Of a DNA stretch of 64,000 nt, positions 7,100 through 28,289 are shown in pieces. The translations under genes and the position numbers were made by a program. The notes under the pieces are model-generated. The model did no database searches, was not told the origin of the DNA, and worked only from the letters and a program-made list of their open reading frames with translations. Positions within the stretch are counted from its first letter, which is position 1, and every line of letters begins with the position of its first letter. Origin of the DNA: Sinorhizobium terangae (GTDB lineage Bacteria > Pseudomonadota > Alphaproteobacteria > Rhizobiales > Rhizobiaceae); the NCBI RefSeq assembly GCF_009601505.1, contig NZ_WITC01000090.1:33187-97186 (forward strand), in the 5' to 3' direction.

Positions 7100-7115
7100 T
7101 GAGCTGTTCAAGAAT

Positions 7116-7141: not shown

Positions 7142-7255
7142 AGACATCGGCCGCCCGAGGCAGCCACTGCCGGGCAGTCCGCATTTCCGTGTGTGCAAAC
7201 CCCGATAAGTCCTGCTGGAGCATCGGTTCCGGTTTTTCAAAGCTTGGAGTTGCTG

Positions 7256-7780: not shown

Positions 7781-7781
7781 C

Positions 7782-10791: not shown

Positions 10792-12729
10792 ATGTGTGGT
10801 TTTGGTGGCTATTTCGGCTCTGTTCCGGATGGAAGGGCTCTTCTTGAGAAGATGACGGTTGCGATTGCCCATCGCGGACCGGACGAACACGGTGCTTTCA
10901 CCGCGCCGCAGGCTGGTCTTGGCCATGTCAGGCTGTCGATCGTCGGCTTGGGCGATGGCCAGCAGCCGATGTCCGATGCCACGGGCGAACTGACGATCGC
11001 CTTCAACGGCGAGATCTTCAACTATGTCGAACTGCGCGACGAGCTTCGCACCAGAGGCCGCCGCTTCCGCACGTCCAGCGACACGGAAGTCATCCTCCAT
11101 CTCTACGATGAAATGGGCGAGGATTGCGTGTCCCGGCTCAACGGCGACTTCGCCTTTGCGCTGTGGGACAACCGTCGTCGGCGGATGCTGTTGGCGCGCG
11201 ACCGCATGGGCGTCAGGCCGCTGTTTTATGCGATGCGGGCGGGAACGCTCTATTTCGCCTCCGAGGTGAAGGCGCTCCTCCAAGTCCCAGGTATTCCCGC
11301 GGAGATCGACCCGATCGCGCTCGATCAGATTTTTACGCTCTGGGCGCCGATTGCGCCGCGCACGCCGTTCAAGGATATCTTTGAACTCGAACCGGCGAGC
11401 CTGATGGTTGCCGACGACCGCGGCGCAGCTACACGGACCTATTGGAACCTGGCATTTCCGGAGAGGGATGCGCGGTCGCGGGATATCGACGAAGGTGAGG
11501 CTGCCGAGGAACTGCGCGCGCTTCTGACCGATGCGACGCGCATCCGCATGCGGGCCGACGTCCCGGTCGGCGCCTACCTGTCGGGTGGCCTCGATTCGTC
11601 CATCGTGTCGGCGCTCGCTGTCGGCATGGCGCCGCAGGGCCTTCGAACCTTTTCCGTGACCTTCGACAGCGCCGAACATGACGAGAGCGCCTTCCAGCAC
11701 GAGATGGCTGCGGCACTCGGCACCGATCACAGGGCCGTTGCCTGCCATGCCGGCGACATTGCGAAGGTTTTTCCCGACGTCATCCGTTTTGCGGAGAGGC
11801 CGGTGCTTCGAACGGCGCCGGCCCCCCTGTACCAACTCTCCGGTCTTGTGCGCGATTCCGGCCTGAAGGTGGTGCTCACGGGGGAGGGGGCCGACGAAGT
11901 CTTCGCGGGCTACGACATCTTCAAGGAAGCGCGCGTGCGCCGCTTCTGCGGTCGGCAGCCCGGCTCCCAGATAAGACCGCACCTGTTCCGCAAGCTCTAC
12001 CCCTACCTCCCAGGCCTCAAGCAGCAGTCGTCCGAATATCTGGCGGCATTTTTCGGTGCCGGGAACGATCCGCTTGACGACCCGCTCTTTTCGCATCGCC
12101 CGCGGCTCAAGGGGACGGCGGCGACGAAAATGTTCTTCTCGGGCGATTTGCGCGCGAAGCTCGCGGGTTACGATGCGGCCGATGAACTCATTGGCCGCTT
12201 GCCCGAAGCCTTCGGTCGCTGGCATCCGCTGCATCAGGCGCAATATCTTGAAAGCCGTTTCCTTCTGCCGGGCTACATCCTTTCGAGCCAGGGCGACCGC
12301 ATGGCGATGGCCCATGGAGTCGAGGGTCGGTTCCCCTTCCTCGATCACCGTCTTGTCGAATTCGCGGCGGAACTGCCGCCGGAAATGAAGCTTAAGGGTC
12401 TGGTGGAGAAGCACATCCTGCGTGAGGCGACGAAGGATCTGTTGCCGCCTTCGATCGGCAAGCGGACCAAGCAGCCCTATCGCGCACCGGACAGCCATTC
12501 CTTCAGCGGCCGGGGCGAACTCGACTATGTGCGCACCGCCATGGGCGAAGAGGCGATCGCCGCCGGTGGCCTCTTCAACCCAAGCGCGGTGACGAAACTT
12601 TACGAGAAGTGCCGGGCACGCCCGGCTTCCGGCTTCCGCGACAACGCGGCGTTCGTCGGCATCCTGTCGACGCAACTGTGGCTGCAAACATTCACCGGCA
12701 CGAGCATCCGCGCGGCGGAAGCTGCCTAA
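10792..12729 (+). CDS. Asparagine synthetase B-type glutamine amidotransferase
   Basis: 645 residues. Cys2 (MCGFGGYF) is the N-terminal nucleophile of the glutaminase domain, supported by HRGPDEHG and FNGEIFNY. The synthetase domain starts near residue 255 with the ATP pyrophosphatase loop SGGLDSS (264-270), and EGADEVFAGYD follows. Glutamine-derived ammonia would be moved to a carboxylate activated as an adenylate. Rather than making free asparagine, AsnB paralogues in polysaccharide and carrier-protein clusters often amidate a specialised substrate; the ACP and ligase genes directly downstream favour that here. No clear Shine-Dalgarno precedes ATG 10792. Confidence 0.92.
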   Translation: MCGFGGYFGSVPDGRALLEKMTVAIAHRGPDEHGAFTAPQAGLGHVRLSIVGLGDGQQPMSDATGELTIAFNGEIFNYVELRDELRTRGRRFRTSSDTEVILHLYDEMGEDCVSRLNGDFAFALWDNRRRRMLLARDRMGVRPLFYAMRAGTLYFASEVKALLQVPGIPAEIDPIALDQIFTLWAPIAPRTPFKDIFELEPASLMVADDRGAATRTYWNLAFPERDARSRDIDEGEAAEELRALLTDATRIRMRADVPVGAYLSGGLDSSIVSALAVGMAPQGLRTFSVTFDSAEHDESAFQHEMAAALGTDHRAVACHAGDIAKVFPDVIRFAERPVLRTAPAPLYQLSGLVRDSGLKVVLTGEGADEVFAGYDIFKEARVRRFCGRQPGSQIRPHLFRKLYPYLPGLKQQSSEYLAAFFGAGNDPLDDPLFSHRPRLKGTAATKMFFSGDLRAKLAGYDAADELIGRLPEAFGRWHPLHQAQYLESRFLLPGYILSSQGDRMAMAHGVEGRFPFLDHRLVEFAAELPPEMKLKGLVEKHILREATKDLLPPSIGKRTKQPYRAPDSHSFSGRGELDYVRTAMGEEAIAAGGLFNPSAVTKLYEKCRARPASGFRDNAAFVGILSTQLWLQTFTGTSIRAAEAA

Positions 12730-12751
12730 AACAAGACAGGAAGGATGAGAC

Positions 12752-13018
12752 ATGACAGAAACGATCAAGGACAGCGTCAAGGCGTTCATCATCGAGAATT
12801 TTCTCTTCGGTGACACATCCTACGAACTCGCCGACACGGCATCGCTGATCGAGAACGACATCATAGACTCGACCGGCGTGCTGGAGCTCGTCGCTTTCAT
12901 CGAAGACCGCTTCGGCATCGCCATGACCGACGCCGATATCGTCCCGGCAAACCTCGACTCGCTCGCACGCATTTCCGCATTCATCGCGGCGAAGTCCGCA
13001 GTGCCGGTCTCGGCATAG
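12752..13018 (+). CDS. Acyl carrier protein
   Basis: 88 residues with the helical carrier fold and the phosphopantetheine site at Ser40 in NDIIDSTGVLEL, where DST replaces the usual DSL. It is a stand-alone specialised carrier, not the fatty acid AcpP, which would be encoded in a fab cluster. AGGAAGG lies upstream of ATG 12752. Its neighbours, an adenylate-forming ligase and an amidotransferase, suggest it is loaded with a small carboxylic or amino acid by the next gene's product. Confidence 0.92.
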   Translation: MTETIKDSVKAFIIENFLFGDTSYELADTASLIENDIIDSTGVLELVAFIEDRFGIAMTDADIVPANLDSLARISAFIAAKSAVPVSA

Positions 13019-13046
13019 ACAGCGACGGATTGGGGGCGCCACGCGC

Positions 13047-14594
13047 ATGCGGTTCGAGCAATTTTTGATCAGGAACGCCGGAGCAAACGGCGGCAAGGCG
13101 GCGCTCGTCACCGAGCGCAAACGGCTCAGCTATGAGGAGCTCGATGATCTCTCGACCCGCCTCGCCGCCGCCCTCGCTGCAAACGGCGTGAAGCGGAACG
13201 ACCGGGTTCTGGTCTTCATGGACAATTGCTGGGAGGCGGCGGTTTCGATCTTCGCGATCCTCAAGGCCGGCGCGACCTTCAGCCCGATCAACGCGTCGAC
13301 CAAGTCCGACAAGCTCGCCTATATCATCGGCGATTGCGACGCGGCGGCGATCCTCACCCAGGCCAAGTTGATGCCGATCGTCGCGGAGGCGCGCGACCTT
13401 CTGCCCGGCGCGCCGCCTTTCGTTGCTTCAACCGCGGTGCCGGGAGGCCGGACGCCGGAAGGAGCCGCTTCGTTCGAGGATTGTCTGGCGGCAGACCCTT
13501 CGCCCGTTCCCCACGGCGGCATCGATGTCGATCTCGCCATGCTGATCTACACCTCCGGGTCGACCGGCCGGCCGAAGGGGGTGATGATGACGCATCGAAA
13601 TATCGATGCGGCTTCGGAATCGATCACCACCTATCTGCGCAACACGCCCGATGACGTCATCCTCAACGTCCTGCCGCTCGCGTTCGACTACGGCCTCTAC
13701 CAGCTCTTGATGACGGTCCGGCTCGGGGCGACGCTCGTGCTCGAAAGATCCTTCGCCTTCCCGCAGGCGATCTTCGAGCGGATTCGCGCCGAAGGCGTGA
13801 CGGGCTTTCCCCTGGTGCCAACGATGGCGGCGATGATCCTGCAGATGCGCGATCTCGAGCCCGGCTTCCTGCCGAGCCTTCGCTATATCTCGAACACCGC
13901 CGCGGCGCTGCCGCCGGCCCATATCGCGCGTTTGCGAGAACTCTTCCCCTCTGCTCGGCTCTATTCCATGTACGGCCTGACGGAATGCAAACGCTGCACC
14001 TACCTGCCGCCTGAGGAACTGGATCGTCGGCCGGGATCGGTCGGCATCGCCATTCCCAACACGGAAGCCTTTGTCGTCGACGATGAGGGAAACCGGGTGC
14101 CGCCGGGCGTTCCTGGCGAACTGGTGATCCGCGGCCCGCATGTGATGCAGGGATACTGGCGCAACGACGCGGCGACCGAGCGCATGCTGCGGCCCGGCCC
14201 GAACCCGTGGGAAAAGGTGCTTTACACCGGAGATCTCTTCCGCACCGACGAGGAGGGCTTCCTCTATTTCGTCGGCCGCAAGGACGACATCATCAAGACG
14301 CGCGGCGAAAAGGTGGCGCCGAAGGAAGTCGAGACCGTGCTGCACGCCCATCCGGGAATTGCGGAAGCGGTCGTGATCGGTGTTCCTGATCCGGTGCTTG
14401 GGTCTGCGATCGGCGCGCTTGTCGTCCTTTCGGATCCGGCACTGAGCGAGAAGGACATCATTCGTCACTGCGCCCGCCATCTCGAGGATTTCATGGTGCC
14501 GAAGATCGTCGAATTCCGCACCGAACTCCCGAAGACCGATACCGGCAAGGTCAGCCGCAGGCTGGCGGCGGAAACATTGGAGCTTGCAGAATGA
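13047..14594 (+). CDS. AMP-forming acyl/aminoacyl ligase loading the carrier protein
   Basis: 515 residues of the ANL adenylate-forming superfamily. The P-loop is YTSGSTGRPKGVMMTH (about 168-183), the A5-like motif is YSMYGLTECK, and the A8 region is YTGDLFRTDEEGFLYFVGRKDD. The C-terminal catalytic lysine lies in PKTDTGKVSRR. Length fits stand-alone ligases such as DltA-like or acyl-CoA/ACP synthetases. The preceding gene encodes a carrier protein, so loading of that ACP is the natural reading. The substrate cannot be read from sequence. It overlaps the next gene by ATGA. Confidence 0.9.
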   Translation: MRFEQFLIRNAGANGGKAALVTERKRLSYEELDDLSTRLAAALAANGVKRNDRVLVFMDNCWEAAVSIFAILKAGATFSPINASTKSDKLAYIIGDCDAAAILTQAKLMPIVAEARDLLPGAPPFVASTAVPGGRTPEGAASFEDCLAADPSPVPHGGIDVDLAMLIYTSGSTGRPKGVMMTHRNIDAASESITTYLRNTPDDVILNVLPLAFDYGLYQLLMTVRLGATLVLERSFAFPQAIFERIRAEGVTGFPLVPTMAAMILQMRDLEPGFLPSLRYISNTAAALPPAHIARLRELFPSARLYSMYGLTECKRCTYLPPEELDRRPGSVGIAIPNTEAFVVDDEGNRVPPGVPGELVIRGPHVMQGYWRNDAATERMLRPGPNPWEKVLYTGDLFRTDEEGFLYFVGRKDDIIKTRGEKVAPKEVETVLHAHPGIAEAVVIGVPDPVLGSAIGALVVLSDPALSEKDIIRHCARHLEDFMVPKIVEFRTELPKTDTGKVSRRLAAETLELAE

Positions 14595-15598
14595 ACATCC
14601 GTCCGGACCAGGATAAATTTGTCTTCTCGGCCGAGGCCCTGAAGTTAGACGCGGCCGTGGAGACGGATCGCATCGTCGAAGGGCTGCGCGCGCAACTGCG
14701 CGGCATGCGCAAACGCGGTCTCGTGCTCGGCCTTTCCGGCGGCATCGATTCCAGTGTCTCGGTGGCGCTCGCCGTGCGCGCCGTCGGCGCGAAGAACGTC
14801 TTCTGTCTGTTCATGCCCGAAAACGACTCCGATCCGGAGAGCCTCCGCCTCGGCCGACTGGTGGCGGAAACCTTCGGCGTCGAGGCGGTCGTCGAGGACA
14901 TCGGCCCAACGCTCGCAGCGATGGGTTGCTACGAACGCCGCGATGCCTTCATCCGGGAGCTTGTTCCTGATTATGGGCCGGACTGGGCATCGAAGATCGT
15001 CATCGCCAATGCGCTTGAAGGCGATGGCTACAACATCTCCTCGCTGGTCGTCCAGGATCCGGAGGGAAAACAGACGAAGTTACGCATGCCGCCCTCGGTC
15101 TATCTCGGCATTGTTGCCGCGACCAACATGAAGCAGCGCACGCGCAAGCAGATCGAATATTATCACGCCGACCGGTTGAACTTCGCCGTTCTCGGAACCC
15201 CGAACAGGCTCGAATACGACCAGGGCTTTTTCGTCAAGAACGGTGACGGCGCGGCCGATGTCAAGCCGATCGCGCATCTTTACAAATCGCAGGTCTATGC
15301 GCTCGCCGCGCATCTCGACGTCCCTGAGGAGATCCGGCGCAGGCCGCCGACGACGGACACCTATTCGCTCGCGCAGACGCAGGAGGAGTTCTACTTTTCA
15401 CTGCCCTACGACCGCATGGACCTTTGCCTCTATGGTCTGAACAATGGCATCAGCGCCGAGGAGGTTGCCCGCGTGGCGCAACTGACGGCGATCCAGGTGG
15501 AGCGCGTCTGGGCGGATATCGCCGCCAAGCGCAAGGCGACGCGCTACCTGCACCTCGGGCCGCAGCTCGTTCAGCCAGTCGAGGAAATCGGCCACTGA
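14591..15598 (+). CDS. NAD synthase (NadE)-like ATP pyrophosphatase without glutaminase domain
   Basis: 335 residues of the NadE family. The PP-loop is SGGIDSS (49-55), and KLRMPPSVYLGIVAATNMKQRTRK and NRLEYDQGFFVKNGDGAADVKPIAHLYKSQ are NadE-like. The N-terminal nitrilase domain of glutamine-dependent NAD synthases is absent, so it would need free ammonia or a partner. Two roles are possible: an extra ammonia-dependent NAD synthase, or a recruited amide-forming enzyme acting with the AsnB-type protein on a carrier-bound or sugar substrate. ATGA overlap with the ligase argues for the second. The last gene of the first plus-strand operon. Confidence 0.85.
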   Translation: MNIRPDQDKFVFSAEALKLDAAVETDRIVEGLRAQLRGMRKRGLVLGLSGGIDSSVSVALAVRAVGAKNVFCLFMPENDSDPESLRLGRLVAETFGVEAVVEDIGPTLAAMGCYERRDAFIRELVPDYGPDWASKIVIANALEGDGYNISSLVVQDPEGKQTKLRMPPSVYLGIVAATNMKQRTRKQIEYYHADRLNFAVLGTPNRLEYDQGFFVKNGDGAADVKPIAHLYKSQVYALAAHLDVPEEIRRRPPTTDTYSLAQTQEEFYFSLPYDRMDLCLYGLNNGISAEEVARVAQLTAIQVERVWADIAAKRKATRYLHLGPQLVQPVEEIGH

Positions 15599-15661: not shown

Positions 15662-16774
15662 CTAGTCAAAGCGACCACCGAACACACGGTTCCATTGTTC
15701 GCCTGCGAGCCCGTTCATGAAGCCTTGCGCGTTGCGGAAGGCTTCGACGAGTTCCTGGTCGCGGGAGTGGACGACGGTCGAGGCTGCATGGACGAAAGCA
15801 ATGCGGCGGCCAAGCATTGCTTCCAAGAGGGCAGGCTGCGTTCGCCCGCGCAGGCCCGCGACACCGCGCGCGGCCGCATGGTCGATGAGGCAGTCGACGA
15901 CCGGACCGGCCTGCCCCGGCGCGGCAAGGACCTGGAGCACCCGGGCGATGCCGCCGGCACGCACGTGGTAGAAAAACGCGCCCACCGGGGTGCCGCCGCG
16001 CGCGGTGACGGCGGCGAAGACCGGCTCGCCAAATTCCGGCTTCTCGACGGCATCCGCCAGCACGTGATCGAGTTGCCCCGGCGCCCAGTCGGGGCGCAAT
16101 GCAAACTGCGCCGTCAACCGTTCGAAGAGAGCGCCGAAGGCGTGCCGGTCGATATCGGCAACGTGCAAAGCCCCGCGGGCGGACGGGTCTTCCGCCAGCC
16201 CCGACCAGCGCAATCTGCCGCGGTCCATCCTGCTGCGATAAAGGTGATCGACCGAGCGCGCCAGTGGGCTTAGCAGGCGGGCCGGGCGGACACGGCTTGC
16301 AACGAGATCGAGCGCAAAGGCCGAAGGTCGGACGACCCGTATCCATTCGAGGCTGTATTGCGGAAGCGCGATGCCGCGCAGCTTCGTCCACATTTGCGTG
16401 GAAACTTCGCTTGCAGTCTCGCTGAAGGAAAGATCCTGCGGGCCGGCGAGAAAAGCCTTGAGGAGCCGCGCGCCGGCAAGCGGGTCACTCTCGTGCCCTT
16501 CGACCATCAGCGATCCGCAGATCGCGGCGCGCAACCGTCTGCCATTGAAGGTCATCGGCAAGGCATTCACGCCAACGAACCCGGAAACGCGCCCCCCGCC
16601 GTTGACATGGACGAGCGGCGAGATTTCCGGGTCGCATCCGGGCGATTCCAGGTAGAGCTGGCGGAGATAATCGATGAAGCCTGGCGGCGTGGTTTTCCCG
16701 TTGCGGAATACCTTCTGGAACAGCCCGGCAACCGCCGGAATGTCCGCCGCCTCCAAAGGACGGATATCGCTCAT
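15662..16774 (-). CDS. GNAT-like acyltransferase family protein (paralogue of 19033-20181)
   Basis: 370 residues. The N-terminus IRPLEAADIPAVAGLFQKVF is a typical GNAT opening; GRVSGFVGVNALPM and the later TPVGAFFYHVRAGG look like two GNAT half-domains in tandem. It shares its architecture and short motifs with the plus-strand protein at 19033-20181, including C-terminal LAGEQWNR against LASESWSR. Acyl transfer to an amino sugar or to a carrier-derived intermediate is plausible, the acceptor unknown. It starts in ATGA overlap with the upstream methyltransferase gene and is convergent with the NadE-like gene. Confidence 0.75.
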   Translation of the reverse strand: MSDIRPLEAADIPAVAGLFQKVFRNGKTTPPGFIDYLRQLYLESPGCDPEISPLVHVNGGGRVSGFVGVNALPMTFNGRRLRAAICGSLMVEGHESDPLAGARLLKAFLAGPQDLSFSETASEVSTQMWTKLRGIALPQYSLEWIRVVRPSAFALDLVASRVRPARLLSPLARSVDHLYRSRMDRGRLRWSGLAEDPSARGALHVADIDRHAFGALFERLTAQFALRPDWAPGQLDHVLADAVEKPEFGEPVFAAVTARGGTPVGAFFYHVRAGGIARVLQVLAAPGQAGPVVDCLIDHAAARGVAGLRGRTQPALLEAMLGRRIAFVHAASTVVHSRDQELVEAFRNAQGFMNGLAGEQWNRVFGGRFD

Positions 16775-17508
16775 TCGCCGCGTCCTTCGAATGCGTTGAC
16801 CGCGCTCTCGCCAGCGCGTCTCTGCACCAGTGCGACGCGTGGTTTGCCTGCTGCGTCGGTGGCAAATGTCACGGCACCATAGGCCTTGGTCCGGGCGAGA
16901 AGTGCTGCCGCCTGCCGTTCCTGTCCTTCTCCGAACTCGAACAGCAACCAGCCGCCCGGCTTCAGAAAGGCAATGGCGTCGCGCACCAGGCGTTGATGGA
17001 TGGATATGCCATAGGGACCGCCGTCGAAGGCTTCGCGCGGCTCGGTTGCCAGAAGATGGGCGCTGTCGCCTTCGAGATGCGATGTCGAGATGTAGGGCGG
17101 ATTGCAGACGATCAAGTCGACCGCGCCTTCCAGCTCCTCGCCCTCGAGCGCCGCGAAAAGGTCGCCCTGCCGGATGGTCACGCGCTCCTGAAGGGCAAGA
17201 CGCTCGACGTTGCGGCGAGCAAGCGCCACCGTGCTGTCGGTCAGATCCGCGCCCCAGACGCGTGCGGAAGGAATGTCGGCCGCGATGCCGAGCGCAAGGT
17301 TACCCGAGCCGCAGCACATGTCGATGACTGTCGCCTGCCCGGCATGATCGCGAAGGATGGCGGCGGCACGGCGCCCGAGGAGTTCTGTTTCCTCCCTTGG
17401 CACCAGGACGTCCGGCGCCAGCTCGAGTTCGACGTCCATAAACCGGACGAGGCGAACCGAGGGGGCGCCTGCCTGATTACCGTGCAAATGATCGTGGCCC
17501 TGCTGCAC
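16771..17508 (-). CDS. HemK/PrmC-like N5-glutamine-type methyltransferase lacking the N-terminal domain
   Basis: 245 residues. SAM-binding motif I is IDMCCGSGNLALG (63-75) and the NPPYIS catalytic motif of HemK/PrmC enzymes is at 136-141. VPREETE, which lies near residue 85-90 in PrmC, is at 36-42 here, so the helical release-factor-binding domain is missing. It is therefore probably not the housekeeping release factor methyltransferase but one acting on another amide, amine or hydroxyl group. GTG 17508 has AAGGAG seven bases upstream. Paired by ATGA with a GNAT-like gene in a polysaccharide locus. Confidence 0.82.
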   Translation of the reverse strand: MQQGHDHLHGNQAGAPSVRLVRFMDVELELAPDVLVPREETELLGRRAAAILRDHAGQATVIDMCCGSGNLALGIAADIPSARVWGADLTDSTVALARRNVERLALQERVTIRQGDLFAALEGEELEGAVDLIVCNPPYISTSHLEGDSAHLLATEPREAFDGGPYGISIHQRLVRDAIAFLKPGGWLLFEFGEGQERQAAALLARTKAYGAVTFATDAAGKPRVALVQRRAGESAVNAFEGRGE

Positions 17509-17720
17509 GAACGCTCCTTCGGTTTTGGGGATGGAAAATCAGATCGTCGCGGACCCTATCCCATCCAGGTAAACGGAAACTGAAATGCAATTGATGCGAG
17601 TACGTTAACCGCGCAATCATTTCTGCGTGGTACTGTCCGCGGATGCCGGTGACCGCGCGGACCACCCGTCCGCCCCGAATGCCGTGCACAACGTCGGGCA
17701 GTCGTCAAAGGCAGATCGCA

Positions 17721-19043
17721 ATGGCTTCGGAATGCGCAACAGAACCGGGCAGGTACAAGCCATTTCTGCCGATGCTCCTATCCTATGTTGCCTCCGGCGG
17801 CAGTCTCGTCGTCGGGTCCGCGGCGCAGCTTCTGACCTTCGCTATCCTGGCTCGCTGGCTCGGTGTCCATGAGTTCAGTATCTTCGTTGCGGTTACCGCA
17901 ATCGCCAACATAGCCGTTCATTTGTGCGGGCTCGGCGCCATGGAATGCCTGGTGCGCCGGGTCGCACGCGATCGCGCCATCTATCCGCAAATGCTTGGTC
18001 ACAACATCATCCTGACTGCGGCAAGCGGCGCGGCGCTGGTCCTGATCGGGGCGGCCGTCCTGCCATTCTTTCTCAAGCTTTCCGCCGAACCGCTGACGAA
18101 CGTCGCGGTGATCACCCTGATGCTCGTGACCAATGTCGTGCTGGTTCGCATCATTGTGCTGGTGGAGCAGATCTTTCTCGCCCATTCCGACTTCGCTTCG
18201 GCGAATGTCGTCGTAGTCGGTTTCGCGGTCGCGCGGACAGTTGCGGCGGCGCTTGCCTGTATTGCCTTCGGCGTCGCCACGGTCGCGTCATGGGCCGTCT
18301 GGCAGTTCGTGTGCCATGTTCTGGCGGCCTTGGCCTGCATATGGGCCATTAAGGGGCTCGGCCGGCCACGCTACTGCATCGTGCGGGAGGAATTGCCGCA
18401 AGGCCTCTATTTCAGCATTCCGTTTATCCTGCGCGCGGTGCGCCAGAACGCCGACCTGCTGGTCCTCAGTCTCGTCGCGACCGCTGAGATCGTTTCGAGC
18501 TACAGTGTTGCGCGCCGGATGCTGGAGAGCAGCTATCTGTCCGTCGAGGCGCTGCATCGCCTCATTTACCCCGGTTCGGCAAGAATTTCCGCGGCTGGGC
18601 TGCACCATGCGCTGGAGCGGGTGCGAAAGGTGCTGATCGCCTCCACCGCCATCAGCGTCGCTGCGGCCGTGGTGGTTTTCGTGTTGGCGCCGATCCTGCC
18701 CTATCTGTTCGGCCAGGATTACATTTCTCTCGTCGCATTCGTCAGAAAGCTTTGCTGGGTCATCGTACCGATGGCCATCTGGTCCGTAGCGGTGGAAGCG
18801 CTCGGCGCCTCGGGTTACCACGCTGCCCGGGCGACGGTGATGGGACTTGGCAGCGTAGCGGGGGCGGCGCTCGCCGCGTGGGCGAGTTGGTATGCCCCGC
18901 CTGTCGGCACATTCGTTTCGTTCTATGTGATCGAGATTGCGATGGTTGTCGCCACATGGAGTGTGTTCCTGCATTTCGTCCGGCACGACAGGGAGCAGGC
19001 CGGCCGGCCGGAGGCTTCGGCAAGGATGGTGCATGAAGGCTGA
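17721..19043 (+). CDS. Polysaccharide flippase, Wzx/MurJ-like MOP family
   Basis: About 440 residues, almost entirely membrane segments (around 12), in the layout of oligosaccharide flippases that move undecaprenyl-linked repeat units across the inner membrane. The first segment, SYVASGGSLVVGSAAQLLTFA, and the central RAVRQNADLLVLSLVATAEIVSSYSVARR fit the family. ATG 17721 is chosen because AAAGG lies upstream and the segment 17643-17720 encodes an uncharacteristic basic stretch. Overlaps the next gene by 11 bases. Confidence 0.88.
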   Translation: MASECATEPGRYKPFLPMLLSYVASGGSLVVGSAAQLLTFAILARWLGVHEFSIFVAVTAIANIAVHLCGLGAMECLVRRVARDRAIYPQMLGHNIILTAASGAALVLIGAAVLPFFLKLSAEPLTNVAVITLMLVTNVVLVRIIVLVEQIFLAHSDFASANVVVVGFAVARTVAAALACIAFGVATVASWAVWQFVCHVLAALACIWAIKGLGRPRYCIVREELPQGLYFSIPFILRAVRQNADLLVLSLVATAEIVSSYSVARRMLESSYLSVEALHRLIYPGSARISAAGLHHALERVRKVLIASTAISVAAAVVVFVLAPILPYLFGQDYISLVAFVRKLCWVIVPMAIWSVAVEALGASGYHAARATVMGLGSVAGAALAAWASWYAPPVGTFVSFYVIEIAMVVATWSVFLHFVRHDREQAGRPEASARMVHEG

Positions 19044-20181
19044 GTTGCGGGGTGCTCAATCGGCGCCGGCCGGCGAAACCGACCTGTGCCGATCCGTCGG
19101 CATAAGGGCCATGGAGCGCGCCGACGTCCCCACGATCGGCAAGCTGTTCAAGAAGGTTTTCCGCAAGACCGACCATGAGGGGGGAGAAGACCTCGAGCAC
19201 TATCTGGAGACCGTCTTCTTCGGCAGTCCCCATTATACTCCGGCGTGCGGCAGCGTCGTCCACGAGAATGGCGCAGGTGACATCGACAGCGCGATTCTTG
19301 CGCTTCCATTCGAGTTCCTGGTCCACGGCCGCCCAACCGTCGCCCGGCTTCTCTGCGCCTTCATGGCGGACGGCAAGGCCGGTGCAGCGGGTGCCGCGCG
19401 TCTTGCCCGCATGATGCGCGCGGCGCGCCAGGAGATGTGTTTTTCGGACAGTTCGTCTCCGGTGAGCGCCGACCACTGGGTTGCCGGCGGCGGCGTCGTT
19501 CTGCCCATCCAGAGTCTCGAATGGCGACGTTCCTTTCGGCCGTTCGTCGCGGGCGCTCTCCTTGCGAGCCGGCGCGTTCCGCTGACGCGGTCGCGTGCCG
19601 TGATCGGCGCGCTTGGTTTGGCGGATCACGCCCTGCGTTGGCGGGCGCCGTCGACGAAACCGAGTTCGGTACCGGGATTCGAGACGAGGCCGACAAGCCT
19701 TGAGGAATTCCGCCAGTGCGCGGGACCGATGCTCAAGCGCTTTTCGGTTCGCCCGATCTGGTCGAAATCCGAATTCGATTGGCTCGCCGGCGTTGCCTCG
19801 TTGAACAGAAGTCTTGGCGCGTTGCAGTGCCGGAAGGTGATTTGTGAACGCGGCCGGACCGTCGGTGCCTTCCTCTTCTTCGGCAAAGGGAACCGGATCG
19901 CCAATGTGCTGAACGTGCTTTGCGAGGAGGGACGCGAATTCGACGTCACTGCCGAAATGTTCGCCTCACTCGATCGCGAGGGCTATGCCGCCGCGGTCGG
20001 CATGGCACAGCCCTTTCTGATGAATGCCATCTCGCGCCAGCGATGGCTGTCCTTCCGTCACCGCGGGTACTTCTGCTTGGTCACGCGTCACGCCGACCTC
20101 ATGGACGCGGCAGCGCGCAATGACATCTATATCGGCGGCCTCGCCTCGGAGAGCTGGAGCAGGCTGCTCACGGATTTCTAA
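19033..20181 (+). CDS. GNAT-like acyltransferase family protein (paralogue of 15662-16774)
   Basis: 382 residues. GIRAMERADVPTIGKLFKKVF matches the opening of the protein at 15662-16774, and RTVGAFLFFGKGNRIANVLNVL and GGLASESWSRL match its later segments, so the two are diverged paralogues with a two-lobed GNAT-like layout. ATG 19033 has AAGGA seven bases before it and sits inside the flippase 3' end. The frame continues upstream to 18937, but that part is the flippase read in another frame. Probably modifies a sugar residue or lipid-linked intermediate. Confidence 0.75.
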   Translation: MKAELRGAQSAPAGETDLCRSVGIRAMERADVPTIGKLFKKVFRKTDHEGGEDLEHYLETVFFGSPHYTPACGSVVHENGAGDIDSAILALPFEFLVHGRPTVARLLCAFMADGKAGAAGAARLARMMRAARQEMCFSDSSSPVSADHWVAGGGVVLPIQSLEWRRSFRPFVAGALLASRRVPLTRSRAVIGALGLADHALRWRAPSTKPSSVPGFETRPTSLEEFRQCAGPMLKRFSVRPIWSKSEFDWLAGVASLNRSLGALQCRKVICERGRTVGAFLFFGKGNRIANVLNVLCEEGREFDVTAEMFASLDREGYAAAVGMAQPFLMNAISRQRWLSFRHRGYFCLVTRHADLMDAAARNDIYIGGLASESWSRLLTDF

Positions 20182-20353
20182 GGAAAGGTGCTGTGTTTTT
20201 CCGGCCGCACTGATCACGAGGGCGGCGGAAGGTTACCGACCGCAAGCTGTACTTAACGGAATATTCACCCTGCCAGCCTAGTTCTTGACAATCGATGCGG
20301 GGTACGCAGGGCGCTCTTTGCTGGCTTCAAGGGCATGCGTGGGGAAAAGACGG

Positions 20354-21964
20354 ATGTATCGGCGGAGCGAGCCCGAAGAACAAGGATTACGCCTGCAGAC
20401 ACGCTATCGGCGGCTTCGCTCCGGCGAAGGCTCGCTGCTCGATCTCGTCCCCACACCGGAGGAGGAAGAGGCAATTCTTCCTGAGGTCCGCGGCTCCGAA
20501 GACCGCAGGGCGTCGTTCCGCGCGGTGAATTCTCCGCCGCGCCCGGTAGCCCGGGAACCGGTACAGCCGACCGTTGGCGAATGGCTCACTCGCTTCCAAC
20601 TCATCGGCGAGATCGGCATCGATGACGTGATCCTATGGCTGCGCGACGGAATGCGGTGGATCGTCCTTGCCGTCGTTCTTTGCGTTGCCGCTGCCCTTGC
20701 CTATGCGCTGACGGCGTCGCCGCGATACACCGTCTATACCGACATCGTCGTCGATCCGTCCAACCTCAACGTTGTCAGCGATGACGTCTTCACCAGCAAC
20801 CCGCAGCGCGACGCGCAACTGCTGGAGGTCGAAAGCAAGCTCAGGATTCTCACGTCGCGCAACGTTCTGGCGCGCGTCATCGACAAGCTGCAACTGACGA
20901 AGGATGTTGAGTTCGTCAAACCGTCCCCGCTGGATTTTCTGAAGAACCTGCTCCGGTCGGATCAGGAGGAAGCCGCCGACAATCACCTGGCGGCGCTGCG
21001 CGCTCTGACGGAGCGGGTCGAGGCGCGGCGGGAGGAACGCTCCTTCGTCGTCGTCATGAAGGTCTGGAGCGAGGAACCGGAGAAGGCCGTCGTCCTGTCG
21101 GACGCGATCGTCGATGCCTTTGAAACGGAGCTTTTCCAATCGGCCGCGGAAAGCGCCGGCCGCGTCGCCCAGAACCTGAACGCCCGCCTTGACGAACTGC
21201 GCCGCAACGTGACCGAGGCCGAGAAGAAGGTCGAGGATTTCCGCCGTGCGAATGGATTGCAGTCGACCAACGGCGAGCTCGTCAGCAACCAGCTTTCCAG
21301 CGAGCTCAACACCCAGGTGCTGGCCGCCCAGCAAGGCTTCATCCAGGCTGAGACGCGTTACAAGCAGATGAGCGCGGCGATCGCTAACAAGCAGACGGCG
21401 AGCGCTTCGGTTTTCGAATCCGCCAACATGACGAGCCTGCGGCAGCAGTATAACACGCTGCAGCAGCAGATCGGTTCGATGCGGCTGATCTACGGCGAAA
21501 GGCACCCGCGCCTCGTTTCCGCGCGCTCCGAACGCACGACGCTCGAAGCCGCCATGGACGAGGAGGCCCGGCGTATCCTGGAGCGCGCGAAAGCCGATTT
21601 CGACCGGGAGCAATCCGCCCTCGACGCGCTGCGCGCCAAGGCACGCGCCGAGAAGTCCAATGTCTTCACCGACAACGAGGCCCAGGTGCAGCTGCGCGAC
21701 CTGGAGCGCGACGCGCGGGCAAAGGCGGCGATCTATGAAACGCACCTCGCTCGCGCCCAGCAGATCGCCGAGCGCCAGCAGATCGACGCGACCAATGTCC
21801 GCGTCATCTCGCGCGCGATGCCGCCGAACTCCCGAACCTGGCCGCCCCGGACGTTCATCCTCCTGATTGCCGGCGGCGTGGCAGGGCTCCTCATCGGTGT
21901 GGCAGCCGCGCTGAGCCTTGGCCTGTGGAGGTACGTTCGCGGCGCGCGGCCGATAGCCGGATAA
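20354..21964 (+). CDS. Polysaccharide chain length determinant, Wzz/GumC type without kinase domain
   Basis: 536 residues. A charged cytoplasmic N-terminal region of about 110 residues precedes the first membrane helix (WIVLAVVLCVAAALAYAL). A long periplasmic part rich in coiled coil follows (NARLDELRRNVTEAEKKV onward), then the GNVR-like proline-rich PPNSRTWPPR just before the second helix. It stops soon after that helix, so the C-terminal tyrosine kinase seen in many co-polymerases is absent. It sets chain length with the polymerase encoded next. ATG 20354 has GGGGAAAAG upstream. Confidence 0.9.
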   Translation: MYRRSEPEEQGLRLQTRYRRLRSGEGSLLDLVPTPEEEEAILPEVRGSEDRRASFRAVNSPPRPVAREPVQPTVGEWLTRFQLIGEIGIDDVILWLRDGMRWIVLAVVLCVAAALAYALTASPRYTVYTDIVVDPSNLNVVSDDVFTSNPQRDAQLLEVESKLRILTSRNVLARVIDKLQLTKDVEFVKPSPLDFLKNLLRSDQEEAADNHLAALRALTERVEARREERSFVVVMKVWSEEPEKAVVLSDAIVDAFETELFQSAAESAGRVAQNLNARLDELRRNVTEAEKKVEDFRRANGLQSTNGELVSNQLSSELNTQVLAAQQGFIQAETRYKQMSAAIANKQTASASVFESANMTSLRQQYNTLQQQIGSMRLIYGERHPRLVSARSERTTLEAAMDEEARRILERAKADFDREQSALDALRAKARAEKSNVFTDNEAQVQLRDLERDARAKAAIYETHLARAQQIAERQQIDATNVRVISRAMPPNSRTWPPRTFILLIAGGVAGLLIGVAAALSLGLWRYVRGARPIAG

Positions 21965-21977
21965 GGGAGCCGCAGGT

Positions 21978-23309
21978 ATGAGCAGTGCCACCTACAGCGA
22001 GGACCGGTCCACCGAGACCCTGATGGCGCCGGCCGGAACCTTTCTGTTCATGGCGATGTTCCTGTTCCTGTGGATCTCCATCGACCCCTTTGTCGACCTG
22101 ACGGGTGAGGCGATCCTGGACCCCTCGGCCGGCAATTCCAGTCGGCTGAATCAGATCATATCCCTGGCTCTCTTCGCCGGCACGCTTTGCTACGGCGTGC
22201 TTCATCCGATGCGGAATATGATCCTGCAGCCGCGCCTCCTTCTGACCGTCCTGTTCACCTGGTTTCTTCTCGTTTCGGTCATTTCCGCGCATCCGATCTT
22301 GGGCATCAAGGGCGTCGTTCTCAGCGTCATGATGGCGGTTAACGCCAGCATCTATCTGTTGATGCCGGCTTCGGAACGGCATTTCGCCAAGATGCTCGGG
22401 ATCGGCACGCTCATCATGCTGGCGGTTGCCTATTACGGCATCCTTTTCAAGCCGACGCTTGCCATCCATCAGGCTTCGGAACTGCGTGAACCGATGAATG
22501 CTGGGTTGTGGCGAGGCCATTTTCCGCACAAGAACAGCGCCGCCGCCGCGATGGTGATTGGCGCCTTCTTCGGTTTCTTCGTCATGAACACCTGGTCGCG
22601 CCTCGCCGGCATCGCGATCATTGCGCTGTCCTGCGTCTTTCTCGTCCACACCGGTGGAAAGACCTCGACGGCGATGCTTCCGGGGATATTGATCCTCGCA
22701 TGGCTTTTCGAGCATGCGCGATTCCTGCGCATTCCGATCGCCGTCGGTGGCGTCGGGCTCTTCAATCTCTTCGCCGTGGGCTCGGCCGTCTTCATTCCGC
22801 TCGGTGAGTTCATTAGCGGGCTTGGTATCGACGCGACTTTCACGAACCGGGCCGACATCTGGCGCTTCGCCTTCTCGGCGCTCGCGGAGCATCCGTTGCT
22901 TGGCTATGGCTTCAGGGCCTTCTGGCAGACGGAAGAATTGGTCTACAGCGGCGGATCGGTGGAAACGTGGGCCGTCGCCGCGGCCAACGGGCACAATTCC
23001 TACCTGGACACAGCATTGATGACCGGATTTCCCGGGCTGATCCTGACCGTCATCTGGGTCATTCTGCTGCCGCTTCGCGACATCTCCCGGATCGCTCCGG
23101 ATCGCGAGCACTCCCATCTCACGCGGCTGTTCATTCGCGTCTGGCTTTACACGATTTTCCATGCCGGCCTCGAGACGTTGTTCTTCGAAGGCGGGAACCT
23201 CATCTGGTTCACGTTCATGTTCGCGCTCTACGGCCTGCATCTCCAGTCGTCGGCGGTTTTGACGGTCGATCGGCAATCGGTGAAAAGCAGAAAGGTGGCG
23301 CATGCCTGA
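21978..23309 (+). CDS. O-antigen ligase/polymerase (Wzy/ExoQ-like) membrane protein
   Basis: 443 residues with about ten membrane segments and the large periplasmic loop of the Wzy/WaaL family. Diagnostic stretches are LWRGHFPHKNSAAAAMVIG, RADIWRFAFSALAEHPLLGYG and NGHNSYLDTALMTGFPG. It should join lipid-linked repeat units into polymer with the Wzz-type protein just upstream, 13 bases away. Its 3' end overlaps the deacetylase gene by 8 bases. Confidence 0.9.
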   Translation: MSSATYSEDRSTETLMAPAGTFLFMAMFLFLWISIDPFVDLTGEAILDPSAGNSSRLNQIISLALFAGTLCYGVLHPMRNMILQPRLLLTVLFTWFLLVSVISAHPILGIKGVVLSVMMAVNASIYLLMPASERHFAKMLGIGTLIMLAVAYYGILFKPTLAIHQASELREPMNAGLWRGHFPHKNSAAAAMVIGAFFGFFVMNTWSRLAGIAIIALSCVFLVHTGGKTSTAMLPGILILAWLFEHARFLRIPIAVGGVGLFNLFAVGSAVFIPLGEFISGLGIDATFTNRADIWRFAFSALAEHPLLGYGFRAFWQTEELVYSGGSVETWAVAAANGHNSYLDTALMTGFPGLILTVIWVILLPLRDISRIAPDREHSHLTRLFIRVWLYTIFHAGLETLFFEGGNLIWFTFMFALYGLHLQSSAVLTVDRQSVKSRKVAHA

Positions 23310-24057
23310 GATCGCACGGAAGATCGACGGGTTGGTCGATCGCTTGGCAAACCGGCTGATCTGGCGCTTTGCCCGGCAACGGCTGAGGCTCGAAACCGAG
23401 GTGCCGCTCGTCTCCTTCACCTTCGACGACGTTCCCGACACGGCACTCGACTACGGGGCAGCCATTCTGGAGCAGCACGGTGCGCGCGGCACCTTCTACA
23501 TCGCTGGCGGGCTTGCAGGGCAGGTGGAACCGGACCGAACGCTGATCTCACCTGCCGGCTGCAGTGAACTGCTCGCGCGCGGACACGAAATCGGCTGCCA
23601 CACCTTCTCGCATCGCAGGATGCGGGACATGTCCGCGCTTGGCCGCGATCTCGACCGCAATGCGGCCTACCTCGATGGCGTCGGTGTTGCCTCCGCTCCG
23701 GCAAATTTCGCCTTTCCGTACAATGCGGCCTGGCCCTTGGCGCGTCCGGAGCTTCGCAGGCGCTATCGCACCTGTCGGGCTGGCGGTGAGGCCATCAATC
23801 GCGGAATGGTGGATCCGCTGATGCTCAAGGGCGTCGAGATCCGGCAGCCGGAGCAGCATGCACGCGCGCTGACGCGCTGGATAGACGACGTCGTCGAGCG
23901 CCCGGGCTGGCTCGTCTTCTTCACACATGACATCGCCCCGTCGCCAACGCCCTATGGCTGCACGCCGGAAACCTTCGATCATCTGGTCCGCCATGCGGTC
24001 GACAAGGGATGCCAGGTGCTTCCGGTCGATCAGGTGCTCGACCGGATCAACTGGTGA
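23302..24057 (+). CDS. Polysaccharide deacetylase, NodB homology domain
   Basis: 251 residues. SFTFDDVPDTALDYG carries the first NodB motif (TFDD) and EIGCHTFSHRRM carries the metal-binding HxxxH pair. GARGTFYIAGG is the usual strand 2. It has no signal peptide, so it probably acts in the cytoplasm on lipid-linked or nucleotide sugars, removing N- or O-acetyl groups. A deacetylase and two GNAT-like acyltransferases in one locus suggest exchange of an acetyl group for another acyl group, which is inference. Confidence 0.92.
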   Translation: MPEIARKIDGLVDRLANRLIWRFARQRLRLETEVPLVSFTFDDVPDTALDYGAAILEQHGARGTFYIAGGLAGQVEPDRTLISPAGCSELLARGHEIGCHTFSHRRMRDMSALGRDLDRNAAYLDGVGVASAPANFAFPYNAAWPLARPELRRRYRTCRAGGEAINRGMVDPLMLKGVEIRQPEQHARALTRWIDDVVERPGWLVFFTHDIAPSPTPYGCTPETFDHLVRHAVDKGCQVLPVDQVLDRINW

Positions 24058-24066
24058 GATGCACGG

Positions 24067-25311
24067 ATGGCGAGTTTCGGGAATGCCAGGAAAAAGTTGC
24101 TTGCGATCAACAACTACTTCTATCGCCGCGGTGGTGCGGAGACGGTGTTTTTCGATCACATGAGCATGTTCGGTGAGATCGGCTGGGACGTCGTGCCGTT
24201 CGCCATGCAGCACGATCGCAACGAAGCTTCGCCGTGGTCGGGCTATTTCGTATCGGAAATCGAATACGGCCGGCAGACGGGCCTGCTGCGGAAAGTCTCT
24301 CAAGCCGCGAGCGTCATCTATTCCCTCGAGGCGCAGCGCAACATCGGACGGCTCATCGAGCAAGTGCGGCCGTCGGTCGCCCACGCCCACAATGTCTATC
24401 ACCATCTGTCGCCGGCAATCTTCTCGACACTCAAGTCCGCCGGCATTCCGGTGGTGATGACCGTTCACGACCTCAAGCTTGCCTGTCCGTCCTACAAGAT
24501 GCTCCGCGACGGAAAGGTCTGCGAGGATTGCAGCGGCGGGCGCATCTACAATGTGCTGCGTCACCGTTGCGTCAAGGACTCCGTATCGCTCAGCGCCGTT
24601 GTGCTCGCCGAAACCATGCTGCACCGCCTGCTCGGACTCTACCGCAAACGGGTGGATCGCCTCGTGGTGCCGAGCCGGTTTTACCTGGAAAAGCTGGCCG
24701 AATGGAACTGGCCGCACGAGAAGATGGTCCACGTCCCGAACTTCGTCGATGTCGAGGAGTATCGCGACGACTGGCAGGAGGAAGACTATTTCGTCTTTGC
24801 CGGCCGGCTTGCTCCGGAGAAGGGGATTGCGACGCTGATCCGGGCCGTCGCCCTCTCGAAACAGCGGCTGATAATCGCCGGTACCGGACCGGAGGAGGCG
24901 GGCCTTCGGCAACTCGCGGCCGAGCTCGGCGCGGACGTAAGTTTCGCCGGCTATCTTTCAGGTGAGGATCTGCATCGCCTGATCGGCCAGTCCCTGGGGC
25001 TCGTGCTTCCCTCCGAATGGTACGAGAACGCACCTGTCAGCATTCTTGAGACCTATGCGCTCGGGCGCCCGGTTATCGGCGCGGCGATCGGCGGCATTCC
25101 GGAAATGGTGAAGGAAGGCGAGACCGGCCTGCTGGCGGCGCCCGGCGATGTCGAAGATCTCGCCAGCGCCTTGAGTGCCATGGCGGCGCTTGCACCAGCC
25201 GCTCGCGCGCAAATGGGCACTGCGGGCCGCGCCTGGATCGCCAGCGAGTTCTCCGCGGCGGCCTATCGCGCCAGGACGCTCGACGTCTACGCAGCGCTTG
25301 GGGCTGCCTAA
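24067..25311 (+). CDS. Glycosyltransferase family 4 with internal cysteine cluster
   Basis: 414 residues, GT-B fold. The N-terminal acceptor half opens with NNYFYRRGGAETVFFDHM; the nucleotide-sugar half has FAGRLAPEKGIATLIRAV and the ESILE-type region PVSILETYALGRPVIG. Between them, near residues 139-170, four cysteines are spaced C-x11-C-x2-C-x12-C (LACPSYK, KVCEDCSG, RHRCVK), which could bind zinc; the same cluster occurs in a GT4 subgroup I recall from exopolysaccharide loci. It adds one sugar to the lipid-linked repeat unit on the cytoplasmic side. Confidence 0.92.
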   Translation: MASFGNARKKLLAINNYFYRRGGAETVFFDHMSMFGEIGWDVVPFAMQHDRNEASPWSGYFVSEIEYGRQTGLLRKVSQAASVIYSLEAQRNIGRLIEQVRPSVAHAHNVYHHLSPAIFSTLKSAGIPVVMTVHDLKLACPSYKMLRDGKVCEDCSGGRIYNVLRHRCVKDSVSLSAVVLAETMLHRLLGLYRKRVDRLVVPSRFYLEKLAEWNWPHEKMVHVPNFVDVEEYRDDWQEEDYFVFAGRLAPEKGIATLIRAVALSKQRLIIAGTGPEEAGLRQLAAELGADVSFAGYLSGEDLHRLIGQSLGLVLPSEWYENAPVSILETYALGRPVIGAAIGGIPEMVKEGETGLLAAPGDVEDLASALSAMAALAPAARAQMGTAGRAWIASEFSAAAYRARTLDVYAALGAA

Positions 25312-25450
25312 GAAGCTGGACGCTGCTGCAGCATCCCTACTGCGCAATCGTCTGATTTTCGCGCATTTCCTTCGAAGTTTAAGGAATTTCTTACGGAGAG
25401 CGTAGGCGCTTGCGGTGCATACCCAAGGGAAATCCTTGGGGCTGACAACC

Positions 25451-27230: not shown

Positions 27231-27290
27231 AAAACGCTGCGGGAACGGCTTTGGCGCTCGCGACACCCTGCCGATATCTTGGGGGCTCTT

Positions 27291-28289
27291 TTGACAGTAT
27301 CCGTCATCATCAAGACCTTGAACGAAGAGAAGCGGATCGCCGCGACGATCGAAAGCGTCGTTGCGGCGCTGGCGGGCAAGGAGGGCGAAATCATCATTGC
27401 CGACAGCGGATCGTCCGACCGGACCGTGGAGATCGCCGCGCAATATCCCGTCACCATCGCGCAGATCGTCCCGCCGGCGCTTCCGAGCTGCGGTATCGGG
27501 CCGCAGCTCGGCTTCCAATATTCCCGACATCCCTTCGTCTGCCTGATGGACGGCGACATGCTGCTCGATGCTGGCTTTCTCGACGAGGCGATCGCCTTTC
27601 TCGCGGAAAATCCCTCGGTAGGCGGTGTCACTGGCCACGTGGAGGAGAAGCTCGTTTCCAACCTGGAATTCGCCCGGCGCGTCAACCGCAATGCGCCGGA
27701 GAACCGCATTGGCCCGATCGACCGCATGAATGGAGGCGGCCTCTATCGGCGCGCCGCCATCGAGGACGTCGGCTATCTTTCGGACCGGAATCTTCACGGC
27801 TACGAGGAGTTCGAGCTCGGTGTGCGGCTTCGAAGCGCCGGCTGGGGTCTCCATCGCCTCGACCGCCGCTTCGTCCAGCATTTCGGTCACACCGTCAATT
27901 CCTACCGCCTGCTCGTCCGTCGCTGGAAGAGCAAATATCTTTATGGCATCGGCGAATTGCTGCGTGCTTCGCTCGGAAAGCCTTATTTCCTTCAGGTGCT
28001 GCGGGAACTGCCGGAACTGAAACTGTGGGCGCTCGTCTATCTCTGGTGGGCGCTGTCTCTCGGCCTGATCCTGTTCCTGCCGCACAAAGGCATGGCGATA
28101 GCATCGGTCTCGGCGATGTTTGCGGCTGTTGTGCTGTTGGTCAGCCTCAAGAAGGGCAGCCTCGGCATGGGCCTTTATACGGTCGTTGCCTGGTTCTTCC
28201 ATGCCGCGGCGTTACCGGTTGGCTTGTTCCGGTCGCGGCTAAAGCCGGGCGCGCCGATCGAGAGCAGAATCCTCGGCAAGCCCGCATGA
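27291..28289 (+). CDS. Glycosyltransferase family 2, probable TTG start
   Basis: About 332 residues. The GT-A core starts immediately with LTVSVIIKTLNEEKRI, then IIIADSGSSDRTVEIA and MDGDML (the DxD-type metal site). After YEEFELGVRL come two or three C-terminal membrane helices (WALVYLWWALSLGLILFL onward). TTG 27291 has GGGGG five bases upstream; TTG 27279 in frame has no such signal. The stop overlaps the start of the hydrolase gene (GCATGATGA). Confidence 0.88.
   Translation: MTVSVIIKTLNEEKRIAATIESVVAALAGKEGEIIIADSGSSDRTVEIAAQYPVTIAQIVPPALPSCGIGPQLGFQYSRHPFVCLMDGDMLLDAGFLDEAIAFLAENPSVGGVTGHVEEKLVSNLEFARRVNRNAPENRIGPIDRMNGGGLYRRAAIEDVGYLSDRNLHGYEEFELGVRLRSAGWGLHRLDRRFVQHFGHTVNSYRLLVRRWKSKYLYGIGELLRASLGKPYFLQVLRELPELKLWALVYLWWALSLGLILFLPHKGMAIASVSAMFAAVVLLVSLKKGSLGMGLYTVVAWFFHAAALPVGLFRSRLKPGAPIESRILGKPA

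What the first reader, a model, noticed from the sequence alone, without database searches (positions are those of the whole stretch)
10792..15598. Amidotransferase, carrier protein, adenylation enzyme and NadE-like enzyme form one polysaccharide-linked module
Seen: four genes on one strand with short gaps or overlap encode an AsnB-type protein (Cys2, SGGLDSS), a carrier protein (Ser40), an ANL ligase and an ATP pyrophosphatase without its own ammonia source. Known: AsnB-type proteins, ligases and carrier proteins recur together in XrtA/PEP-CTERM exopolysaccharide loci, but no exosortase is here. Inferred: the ligase loads a carboxylic or amino acid on the ACP, AsnB or the NadE-like enzyme amidates it, and the product decorates the polymer made by the downstream genes. 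A dedicated carrier route to polymer amidation in rhizobia would be new to me.
Basis: partly seen in the sequence, partly recalled or inferred. Interest (0 to 1): 0.72.

Follow-up and report, generated by a model that had tools for sequence, protein, structure and literature searches.

The report
Carrier-protein amidation and acyl-transfer cassette
Four neighbouring genes form a widespread bacterial cassette that probably loads a small acid onto a dedicated carrier protein, makes amides and passes the product on, often near polysaccharide genes; one member, now labelled an enzyme that makes the cofactor NAD, may have been put to another use.

Summary
The four genes are real, at the stated coordinates. 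They form a strongly conserved unit: AsnB, carrier, ligase and NadE-like lie on one strand in the same order in 79 of 80 best related loci (the 80th is cut by the end of the stored DNA), and together, partly in other orders, in 8 of 9 loci from unnamed Pseudomonadota genomes. Ligase and carrier are orthologues of S. meliloti SMb20650/SMb20651 (inferred); a paper reports that co-expressing SMb20650 in E. coli yields acylated SMb20651. The NadE-like is a separate branch (100/99) and not the genome's only NAD synthase. A fifth, overlooked partner is a tandem-GNAT acyltransferase family (68 of 80), a plausible transfer step. The polysaccharide link is supported but not obligatory: such genes lie within 10 kb in 45 of 80 loci against 0 of 20 controls, and 14 of 20 tested genomes without them nearby have no window-type flippase. 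Amino-acid loading is not secured. Which acid is loaded and what is amidated remain inferred. New variant of a known kind, with a possibly misnamed enzyme family.

The parts
10792..12729 (+). AsnB-type glutamine amidotransferase (Cys2, SGGLDSS)
   Evidence: only protein of the genome over the TIGR01536 cut-off
12752..13018 (+). free-standing carrier protein, DST motif, Ser40; inferred orthologue of S. meliloti SMb20651
   Evidence: best solved match a peptidyl carrier protein; Ser 93 of 93, Thr 92 of 93; IDST also in S. meliloti 1021
13047..14594 (+). adenylate-forming ligase (NRPS adenylation / TIGR03098 type); inferred orthologue of SMb20650
14591..15598 (+). NadE-like ATP pyrophosphatase (NF002048 family), no glutaminase domain, added stretch between about residues 108 and 177
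15662..16774 (-). tandem-GNAT acyltransferase (GNAT1), probable transferase of the cassette
   Evidence: (pLDDT 92.4), (68 of 80 loci hold a member of this family)
16771..17508 (-). HemK/PrmC-type methyltransferase (NPPY), frequent neighbour
   Evidence: 42 of 80 loci; motif
17643..19043 (+). Wzx-like flippase of the adjoining polysaccharide locus
   Evidence: 31 of 80 loci
19033..20181 (+). second tandem-GNAT paralogue (GNAT2), about 30% identical to GNAT1
   Evidence: 28 of 80 loci
20285..21964 (+). Wzz/Wzc-type chain-length protein
21978..23309 (+). Wzy/O-antigen ligase-like polymerase
23302..24057 (+). polysaccharide deacetylase
24067..25311 (+). family 4 glycosyltransferase
25415..26755 (+). 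family 4 glycosyltransferase
27279..28289 (+). family 2 glycosyltransferase

Best explanation
A portable carrier-protein cassette. Step 1 (reported for the orthologues): the ligase adenylates a carboxylic acid and loads it on the dedicated DST carrier. Step 2 (inferred): the AsnB-type enzyme releases ammonia from glutamine and turns a free carboxylate, most likely on the carrier-bound acyl group, into an amide; the NadE-derived enzyme, which has no glutaminase of its own, makes a second amide (or amidates the acceptor) with that ammonia. Step 3 (inferred from fold and co-occurrence): the tandem-GNAT transferase moves the amidated acyl group from the carrier to an amine, most likely of an amino sugar; the HemK/PrmC-type methyltransferase may then methylate an amide nitrogen. 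In this genome the product would decorate the repeat unit made by the adjoining Wzx/Wzy locus; elsewhere the same cassette serves other polymers or products.
For: Four genes together in 79 of 80 loci, with three gene orders among 8 of 9 loci from other genomes and a fourth in Azospirillum, so that selection rather than one inherited operon keeps them together. Carrier acylation on co-expression of the ligase in E. coli, reported in PMC7232532. Carrier nearest to peptidyl carriers, ligase to NRPS adenylation domains. NadE-like: NAD-synthetase fold, kept ATP loop, but a branch of its own with 100/99 support, an added stretch and changes at positions fixed in NadE, e.g. Thr to Val215. All 20 genomes tested hold a further NAD-synthase match; 19 clear, 1 partial. 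Tandem-GNAT fold, family in 68 of 80 loci, 0 of 20 controls. Polysaccharide genes in 45 of 80 against 0 of 20; one copy within an XrtA-type EPS locus and one in an Azospirillum EPS locus.
Against: 35 of 80 loci have no polysaccharide gene in the stretch held, 22 of them with full 10-kb flanks. No match to the window-type flippase in 14 of 20 such genomes. L175 shows no AsnB within 20 kb. No acid, amide or acceptor has been identified. The NadE-like scores over NAD-synthase cut-offs and keeps several positions shared with true NAD synthetases.
Confidence: 0.45

Rival explanations
1. The cassette makes a diffusible amide (small peptide-like metabolite, osmolyte or signal); the neighbouring polysaccharide genes are incidental in part of the lineage.
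For: Stand-alone copies: Shinella HZN7 and Mesorhizobium WSM1497 plasmids with no polysaccharide gene annotated within 15 kb (the gene tables are incomplete) and none found by my profiles; a compact GNAT-AsnB-carrier-ligase-NadE cassette beside TniB/TniQ genes in Nitratireductor; 35 of 80 loci without polysaccharide genes nearby.
Against: 45 of 80 against 0 of 20 controls near polysaccharide genes; the link recurs in Azospirillum and in another class. Among the gene clusters shared by the related loci, apart from the four genes and the GNAT none reaches half of the 93 loci, so no exporter or further enzyme is constant.
Confidence: 0.25
2. Lipid route: the ligase loads a fatty acid on the carrier and the tandem-GNAT acylates an amine, giving an amide lipid or acylated glycolipid.
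For: Carrier's best NCBIfam model is the ornithine-lipid carrier (58 bits, under its cut-off of 130); GNAT1 resembles N-myristoyltransferase; [quoted passage not shown] coli; fatty-acid ligases such as FadD5 are among the solved relatives.
Against: SMb20650 could not replace FadD in S. meliloti or E. coli; the highest-scoring solved relatives of the ligase are NRPS adenylation domains; two amide-forming enzymes are hard to place.
Confidence: 0.15
3. NadE-like is a true ammonia-dependent NAD synthase and AsnB a true asparagine synthetase that happen to lie beside a ligase-carrier pair.
For: Both score over curated cut-offs of such families; NadE-like keeps the ATP loop and several positions shared with NadE; AsnB is the genome's only protein over the TIGR01536 cut-off.
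Against: The four stay together across classes in changed order; a Gln-type NadE of 567 aa is encoded elsewhere; separate, long branch in the tree.
Confidence: 0.12

Closest known systems
XrtA/PEP-CTERM exopolysaccharide loci (ligase TIGR03098, amidotransferase TIGR03108, FemAB-type protein, deacetylase)
   Same: Related ligase and AsnB families; a Vibrio XrtA locus has AsnB, FemAB-type protein and deacetylase together; one NadE-containing copy (L171) lies in such a locus
   Different: No exosortase in this genome; ligase and AsnB score under the XrtA cut-offs; a NadE-like partner is constant here
S. meliloti SMb20650/SMb20651 ligase-carrier pair (Ramos-Vega 2009, not held; cited in PMC7232532)
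   Same: Inferred orthologues: 91% and 85-86% identical, on pSymB, DST motif
   Different: In the passages seen the ligase is treated as a FadD homologue and the carrier as of unknown function; the words asparagine and NAD do not occur in the main text of PMC7232532
OxyD-type malonamate-forming amidotransferase of oxytetracycline biosynthesis (PMC6164072, passages)
   Same: An amidotransferase (AsnB kinship recalled) that makes an amidated acyl starter unit
   Different: Polyketide starter; no adenylation ligase or NadE-like (recalled); homology to OxyD not tested
V. cholerae O1 tetronate genes (PMC3441752, passages; carrier and ligase roles recalled)
   Same: Acid attached to the amino group of a polysaccharide sugar by a dedicated gene set
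   Different: No amidating enzymes (recalled); homology not tested
Ammonia-dependent NAD synthetase
   Same: Fold (TM 0.87 to 1xng by target length) and ATP loop
   Different: Added stretch, changed fixed positions, separate branch

Membership tests
NAD(+) synthase (NadE) | fold and ATP-pyrophosphatase loop | tested here: met
NAD(+) synthase (NadE) | curated cut-offs of NAD synthase models | tested here: met
   NF002048 533 against 313, TIGR00552 145 against 64 bits
NAD(+) synthase (NadE) | falls among housekeeping NadE in a tree | tested here: not met
   43 module rows are one side of a branch, support 100/99, in 100% of 200 bootstrap trees
NAD(+) synthase (NadE) | positions fixed in NadE kept | tested here: inconclusive
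   many kept (E208, D219, D223, K232), others changed (V215, K186, T257)
NAD(+) synthase (NadE) | converts NaAD to NAD | not testable with these tools
   needs enzyme assay
XrtA/PEP-CTERM EPS system | exosortase present | tested here: not met
   PF09721: 0 matches in the whole genome
XrtA/PEP-CTERM EPS system | ligase over TIGR03098 and amidotransferase over TIGR03108 cut-offs | tested here: not met
   458 against 592 and 443 against 817 bits
Asparagine synthetase (TIGR01536) | curated cut-off | tested here: met
   515 against 267 bits
Asparagine synthetase (TIGR01536) | amidates free aspartate | not testable with these tools
   needs enzyme assay
NAGGN amidotransferase (TIGR03104) | curated cut-off | tested here: not met
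   381 against 570 bits
Amino-acid:carrier ligase (DltA/NRPS type) | Asp that binds the alpha-amino group kept | tested here: inconclusive
   D in 76 of 94, N/G/T/S in 17, gap in 1; mapping to GrsA Asp235 is recalled
Long-chain acyl-CoA ligase (FadD) | supports growth on oleate | not tested
   reported negative for the orthologue SMb20650

The most novel reading that the evidence does not exclude
NF002048/PRK00876 'NAD(+) synthases' are not NAD synthases but a repurposed NadE that forms an amide within a carrier-protein pathway, fed with ammonia by a partner AsnB; with the tandem-GNAT they make up a mobile system that attaches amidated acyl groups to bacterial surface polymers.
Probability: 0.4. 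Interest if true: 0.7.

Novelty: new variant of a known kind. Interest (0 to 1): 0.5.

Why it matters
A protein family that annotation models name NAD(+) synthase is tied to a carrier, a ligase and an amidotransferase in 79 of 80 loci of the main set, so many records may be misnamed, and a carrier of unknown function in a model legume symbiont gets a testable pathway. If the amide is placed on a surface polymer it would add a carrier-based amidation and acylation route to polysaccharide chemistry.

Tried and rejected
Considered and set aside: membership of the XrtA system (no exosortase, scores under the cut-offs); NAGGN synthesis; sole NAD synthase. Amino-acid loading as the favoured substrate was dropped. 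A promoter/terminator scan gave nothing over shuffles: 1 promoter-like site against a mean of 1.5, 5 terminator-like against 6.7. Planktothrix AsnB lies in another cluster with nadB. My heuristic label 'gln' is wrong for L162 and L164, which group with ammonia-type NadE. In one search nine of the 52 module rows are second copies of loci fetched twice; they were dropped for the tree.

Literature, all in a partial library: search 28 (at least 4 of 5 terms for the partners) and one search (at least 4 of 6) found 0 papers; one search (at least 3 of 5) found 105, of which 15 were listed and seen as titles and abstract starts, none reporting the module there; searches found no paper with SMb20649, SMb20652 or SMb20653 (tag numbers guessed from gene order); one search listed 16. 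Ramos-Vega 2009 and Santos 2018 are not held, so earlier mention of the partners there is not excluded.
Full report
Observation. The four ORFs are at the stated coordinates on the + strand, with gaps of 22 and 28 nt and a 4-nt overlap. NCBIfam places AsnB in TIGR01536 (515 bits, cut-off 267) and the NadE-like in NF002048/PRK00876 (533, cut-off 313; also over TIGR00552, 145 against 64); the ligase is nearest TIGR03098, the exosortase-A-associated ligase, but under its cut-off (458 against 592); the carrier is under the cut-offs of all 5 families it matches. The window lies in a 7.08-Mb genome close to Sinorhizobium/Ensifer: the best relative of the NadE-like in the scan is 98% identical, in Ensifer sp. 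IC3342.

The unit is conserved. In 79 of 80 all four genes lie on one strand in the order AsnB-carrier-ligase-NadE; in the 80th (L120) the stored DNA begins within the ligase. By record title nearly all 80 are Hyphomicrobiales, so they are not independent. Elsewhere, NF002048 passes its cut-off in 15 of 398 Pseudomonadota genomes, with a gap between 465 bits and the next match at 93, and in 1 of 14 control genomes, not named. I fetched 9 of the 15 loci (one of the others is the window itself, five were not examined): 8 of 9 hold all four genes, in three different orders; in L169 two genes lie between AsnB and the rest; L175 has no AsnB within its 20 kb. Azospirillum has carrier-ligase-AsnB-NadE. 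Pairwise distances of the four proteins across 91 loci correlate at 0.78-0.94, as expected of genes inherited together.

The partner that was missed. The ORF at 15662-16774 (-) has no Pfam or NCBIfam match at E 0.001. Its AlphaFold2 model (pLDDT 92.4, pTM 0.90) matches N-myristoyltransferases and GNAT proteins such as 2i00 (E 6e-14 at best, TM about 0.5): a tandem-GNAT acyltransferase. In Shinella and Nitratireductor it is the first gene of a compact five-gene cassette. In L169 and Azospirillum L040 a different protein with weak GNAT matches follows the NadE-like. The HemK/PrmC-type neighbour was found in 42 of 80.

Ligase and carrier. On pSymB of S. meliloti 1021 the only strong carrier match (85%, E 9e-43) lies beside the ligase (91%) and has IDST; the second, weak match (E 0.006) has DSLE and no ligase match nearby. 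PMC12391972 (passage seen) says SMb20651 has a DST motif and unknown function. PMC7232532 (passages seen) says SMb20650 is on pSymB and cotranscribed with SMb20651, that its expression with the carrier and AcpS in E. coli gives acylated SMb20651, citing Ramos-Vega 2009 (not held), and that SMb20650 cannot replace FadD. From these I infer that SMb20650/51 are the orthologues. The acid must then be one that E. coli has. The highest-scoring solved relatives are NRPS adenylation domains, followed by a mixture of oxalate, malonate, fatty-acid, prolyl-carrier and beta-aminoacyl-carrier ligases; for the carrier, peptidyl carriers. The Asp that binds the alpha-amino group in NRPS domains (mapping recalled) is D in 76 of 94, otherwise N 5, G 5, T 6, S 1, gap 1; Arg316 and Met308 are kept in 94 of 94. 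So an amino acid is possible but not secured; the invariant Arg would fit an acid with a second carboxylate (inference).

NadE-like. The model (pLDDT 86.8) has the NAD-synthetase fold. Where it aligns with 2e18, 70 residues (108-177) stand against 17. Against 18 rows labelled ammonia-type and 21 labelled glutamine-type (two of the latter mislabelled) it keeps the ATP loop and E208, D219 and K232, but the added stretch holds residues fixed or nearly so in 52 module rows (P126, W132, K135, R165, Y171), and Thr is Val215 and Leu is Thr257. Kept positions such as D223 leave true NAD synthesis possible. In an 82-row tree the 43 module rows are one side of a branch (100/99; the program flags long branches). 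This genome has a 567-aa Gln-type NadE elsewhere; all 20 further genomes tested hold another NAD-synthase match, 19 clear and one (G582) partial. A paper on A. brasilense (PMC7646526, passage seen) mentions a third NadE without glutaminase domain, detected in extracts but not bound by GlnZ; I infer that it is the module protein.

AsnB. It is the only protein of the genome over the TIGR01536 cut-off. The best solved match is a hydroxyamidotransferase, 7ylz. A precedent for an amidated acyl starter is OxyD of oxytetracycline biosynthesis (PMC6164072, passages; that related enzymes act on a carrier-bound acid is recalled). A Sphingomonas mutant screen lists 12 insertions in an exosortase-associated amidotransferase of a cell-associated polysaccharide cluster among colony-morphology mutants (PMC11340318, passages), which fits a polysaccharide role for that kin.

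Polysaccharide link. Among loci with full 10-kb flanks it is 40 of 62. The profiles favour window-like loci and miss some: L168 was counted as without, yet has a Wzy_C protein. Thirty-five of 80 show none, though 30 of these 35 keep a GNAT. In 20 of the 35 I searched the whole genome for the window-type Wzx: 6 have it, three of them 11 to 16 kb away on the same contig, and 14 show no match; draft genomes may be incomplete. L171 lies inside an XrtA-type locus (TIGR03006 over its cut-off; TIGR03007, 3015, 3016 and 3018 under theirs), and L168 has a TIGR03015 match under its cut-off.

Mechanism. Shown or reported: fold and family of the parts, co-occurrence, carrier acylation with the orthologous ligase. 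Inferred: amide formation by AsnB and the NadE-like, transfer by the tandem-GNAT, an amino sugar as acceptor, methylation of an amide nitrogen.

Novelty. Ligases and AsnB-type amidotransferases of XrtA EPS loci are known (NCBIfam names). The constant NadE-like partner and the GNAT cassette were not found in print in searches of a partial library. New variant of a known kind.

Noticed in passing
L198:10776-16761 (Nitratireductor rhodophyticola plasmid): Compact GNAT-AsnB-carrier-ligase-NadE cassette beside Mu-type transposase, TniB and TniQ genes: possible mobile spread.
   Followed up: partly
L038:16056-28359 (S. meliloti pSymB): minCDE, a two-component system, an EAL protein and an L,D-transpeptidase lie between the four genes and the GNAT1/HemK/Wzx/GNAT2 part.
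   Followed up: no
window 17643-20181: A second tandem-GNAT paralogue (about 30% identical to GNAT1) directly after Wzx, suggesting two acylations.
   Followed up: partly
window 28286-30448: 721-aa frame without Pfam match after the GT2 gene, with a probable signal peptide by eye; by eye it resembles a protein shared by 8 of the related loci (cluster 18).
   Followed up: no
window 5123-8645: PQQ dehydrogenase and cytochrome c, XoxF/XoxG-like by recall, with a periplasmic binding-type protein by eye, upstream of the module.
   Followed up: no
L197:5260-8869 (Planktothrix agardhii plasmid): AsnB relative directly after an L-aspartate oxidase (nadB) gene, with aminotransferase and amidase genes: another NAD-pathway relative beside an AsnB.
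   Followed up: no
L173:8379-9413: A thioesterase-domain protein precedes the NadE-like where the tandem-GNAT is missing, with sugar-nucleotide and aminotransferase genes downstream.
   Followed up: no
L116: A contig titled Bacillus subtilis carries the cassette at 71% identity, much like the Pseudochrobactrum copies; probably a mislabelled record.
   Followed up: no
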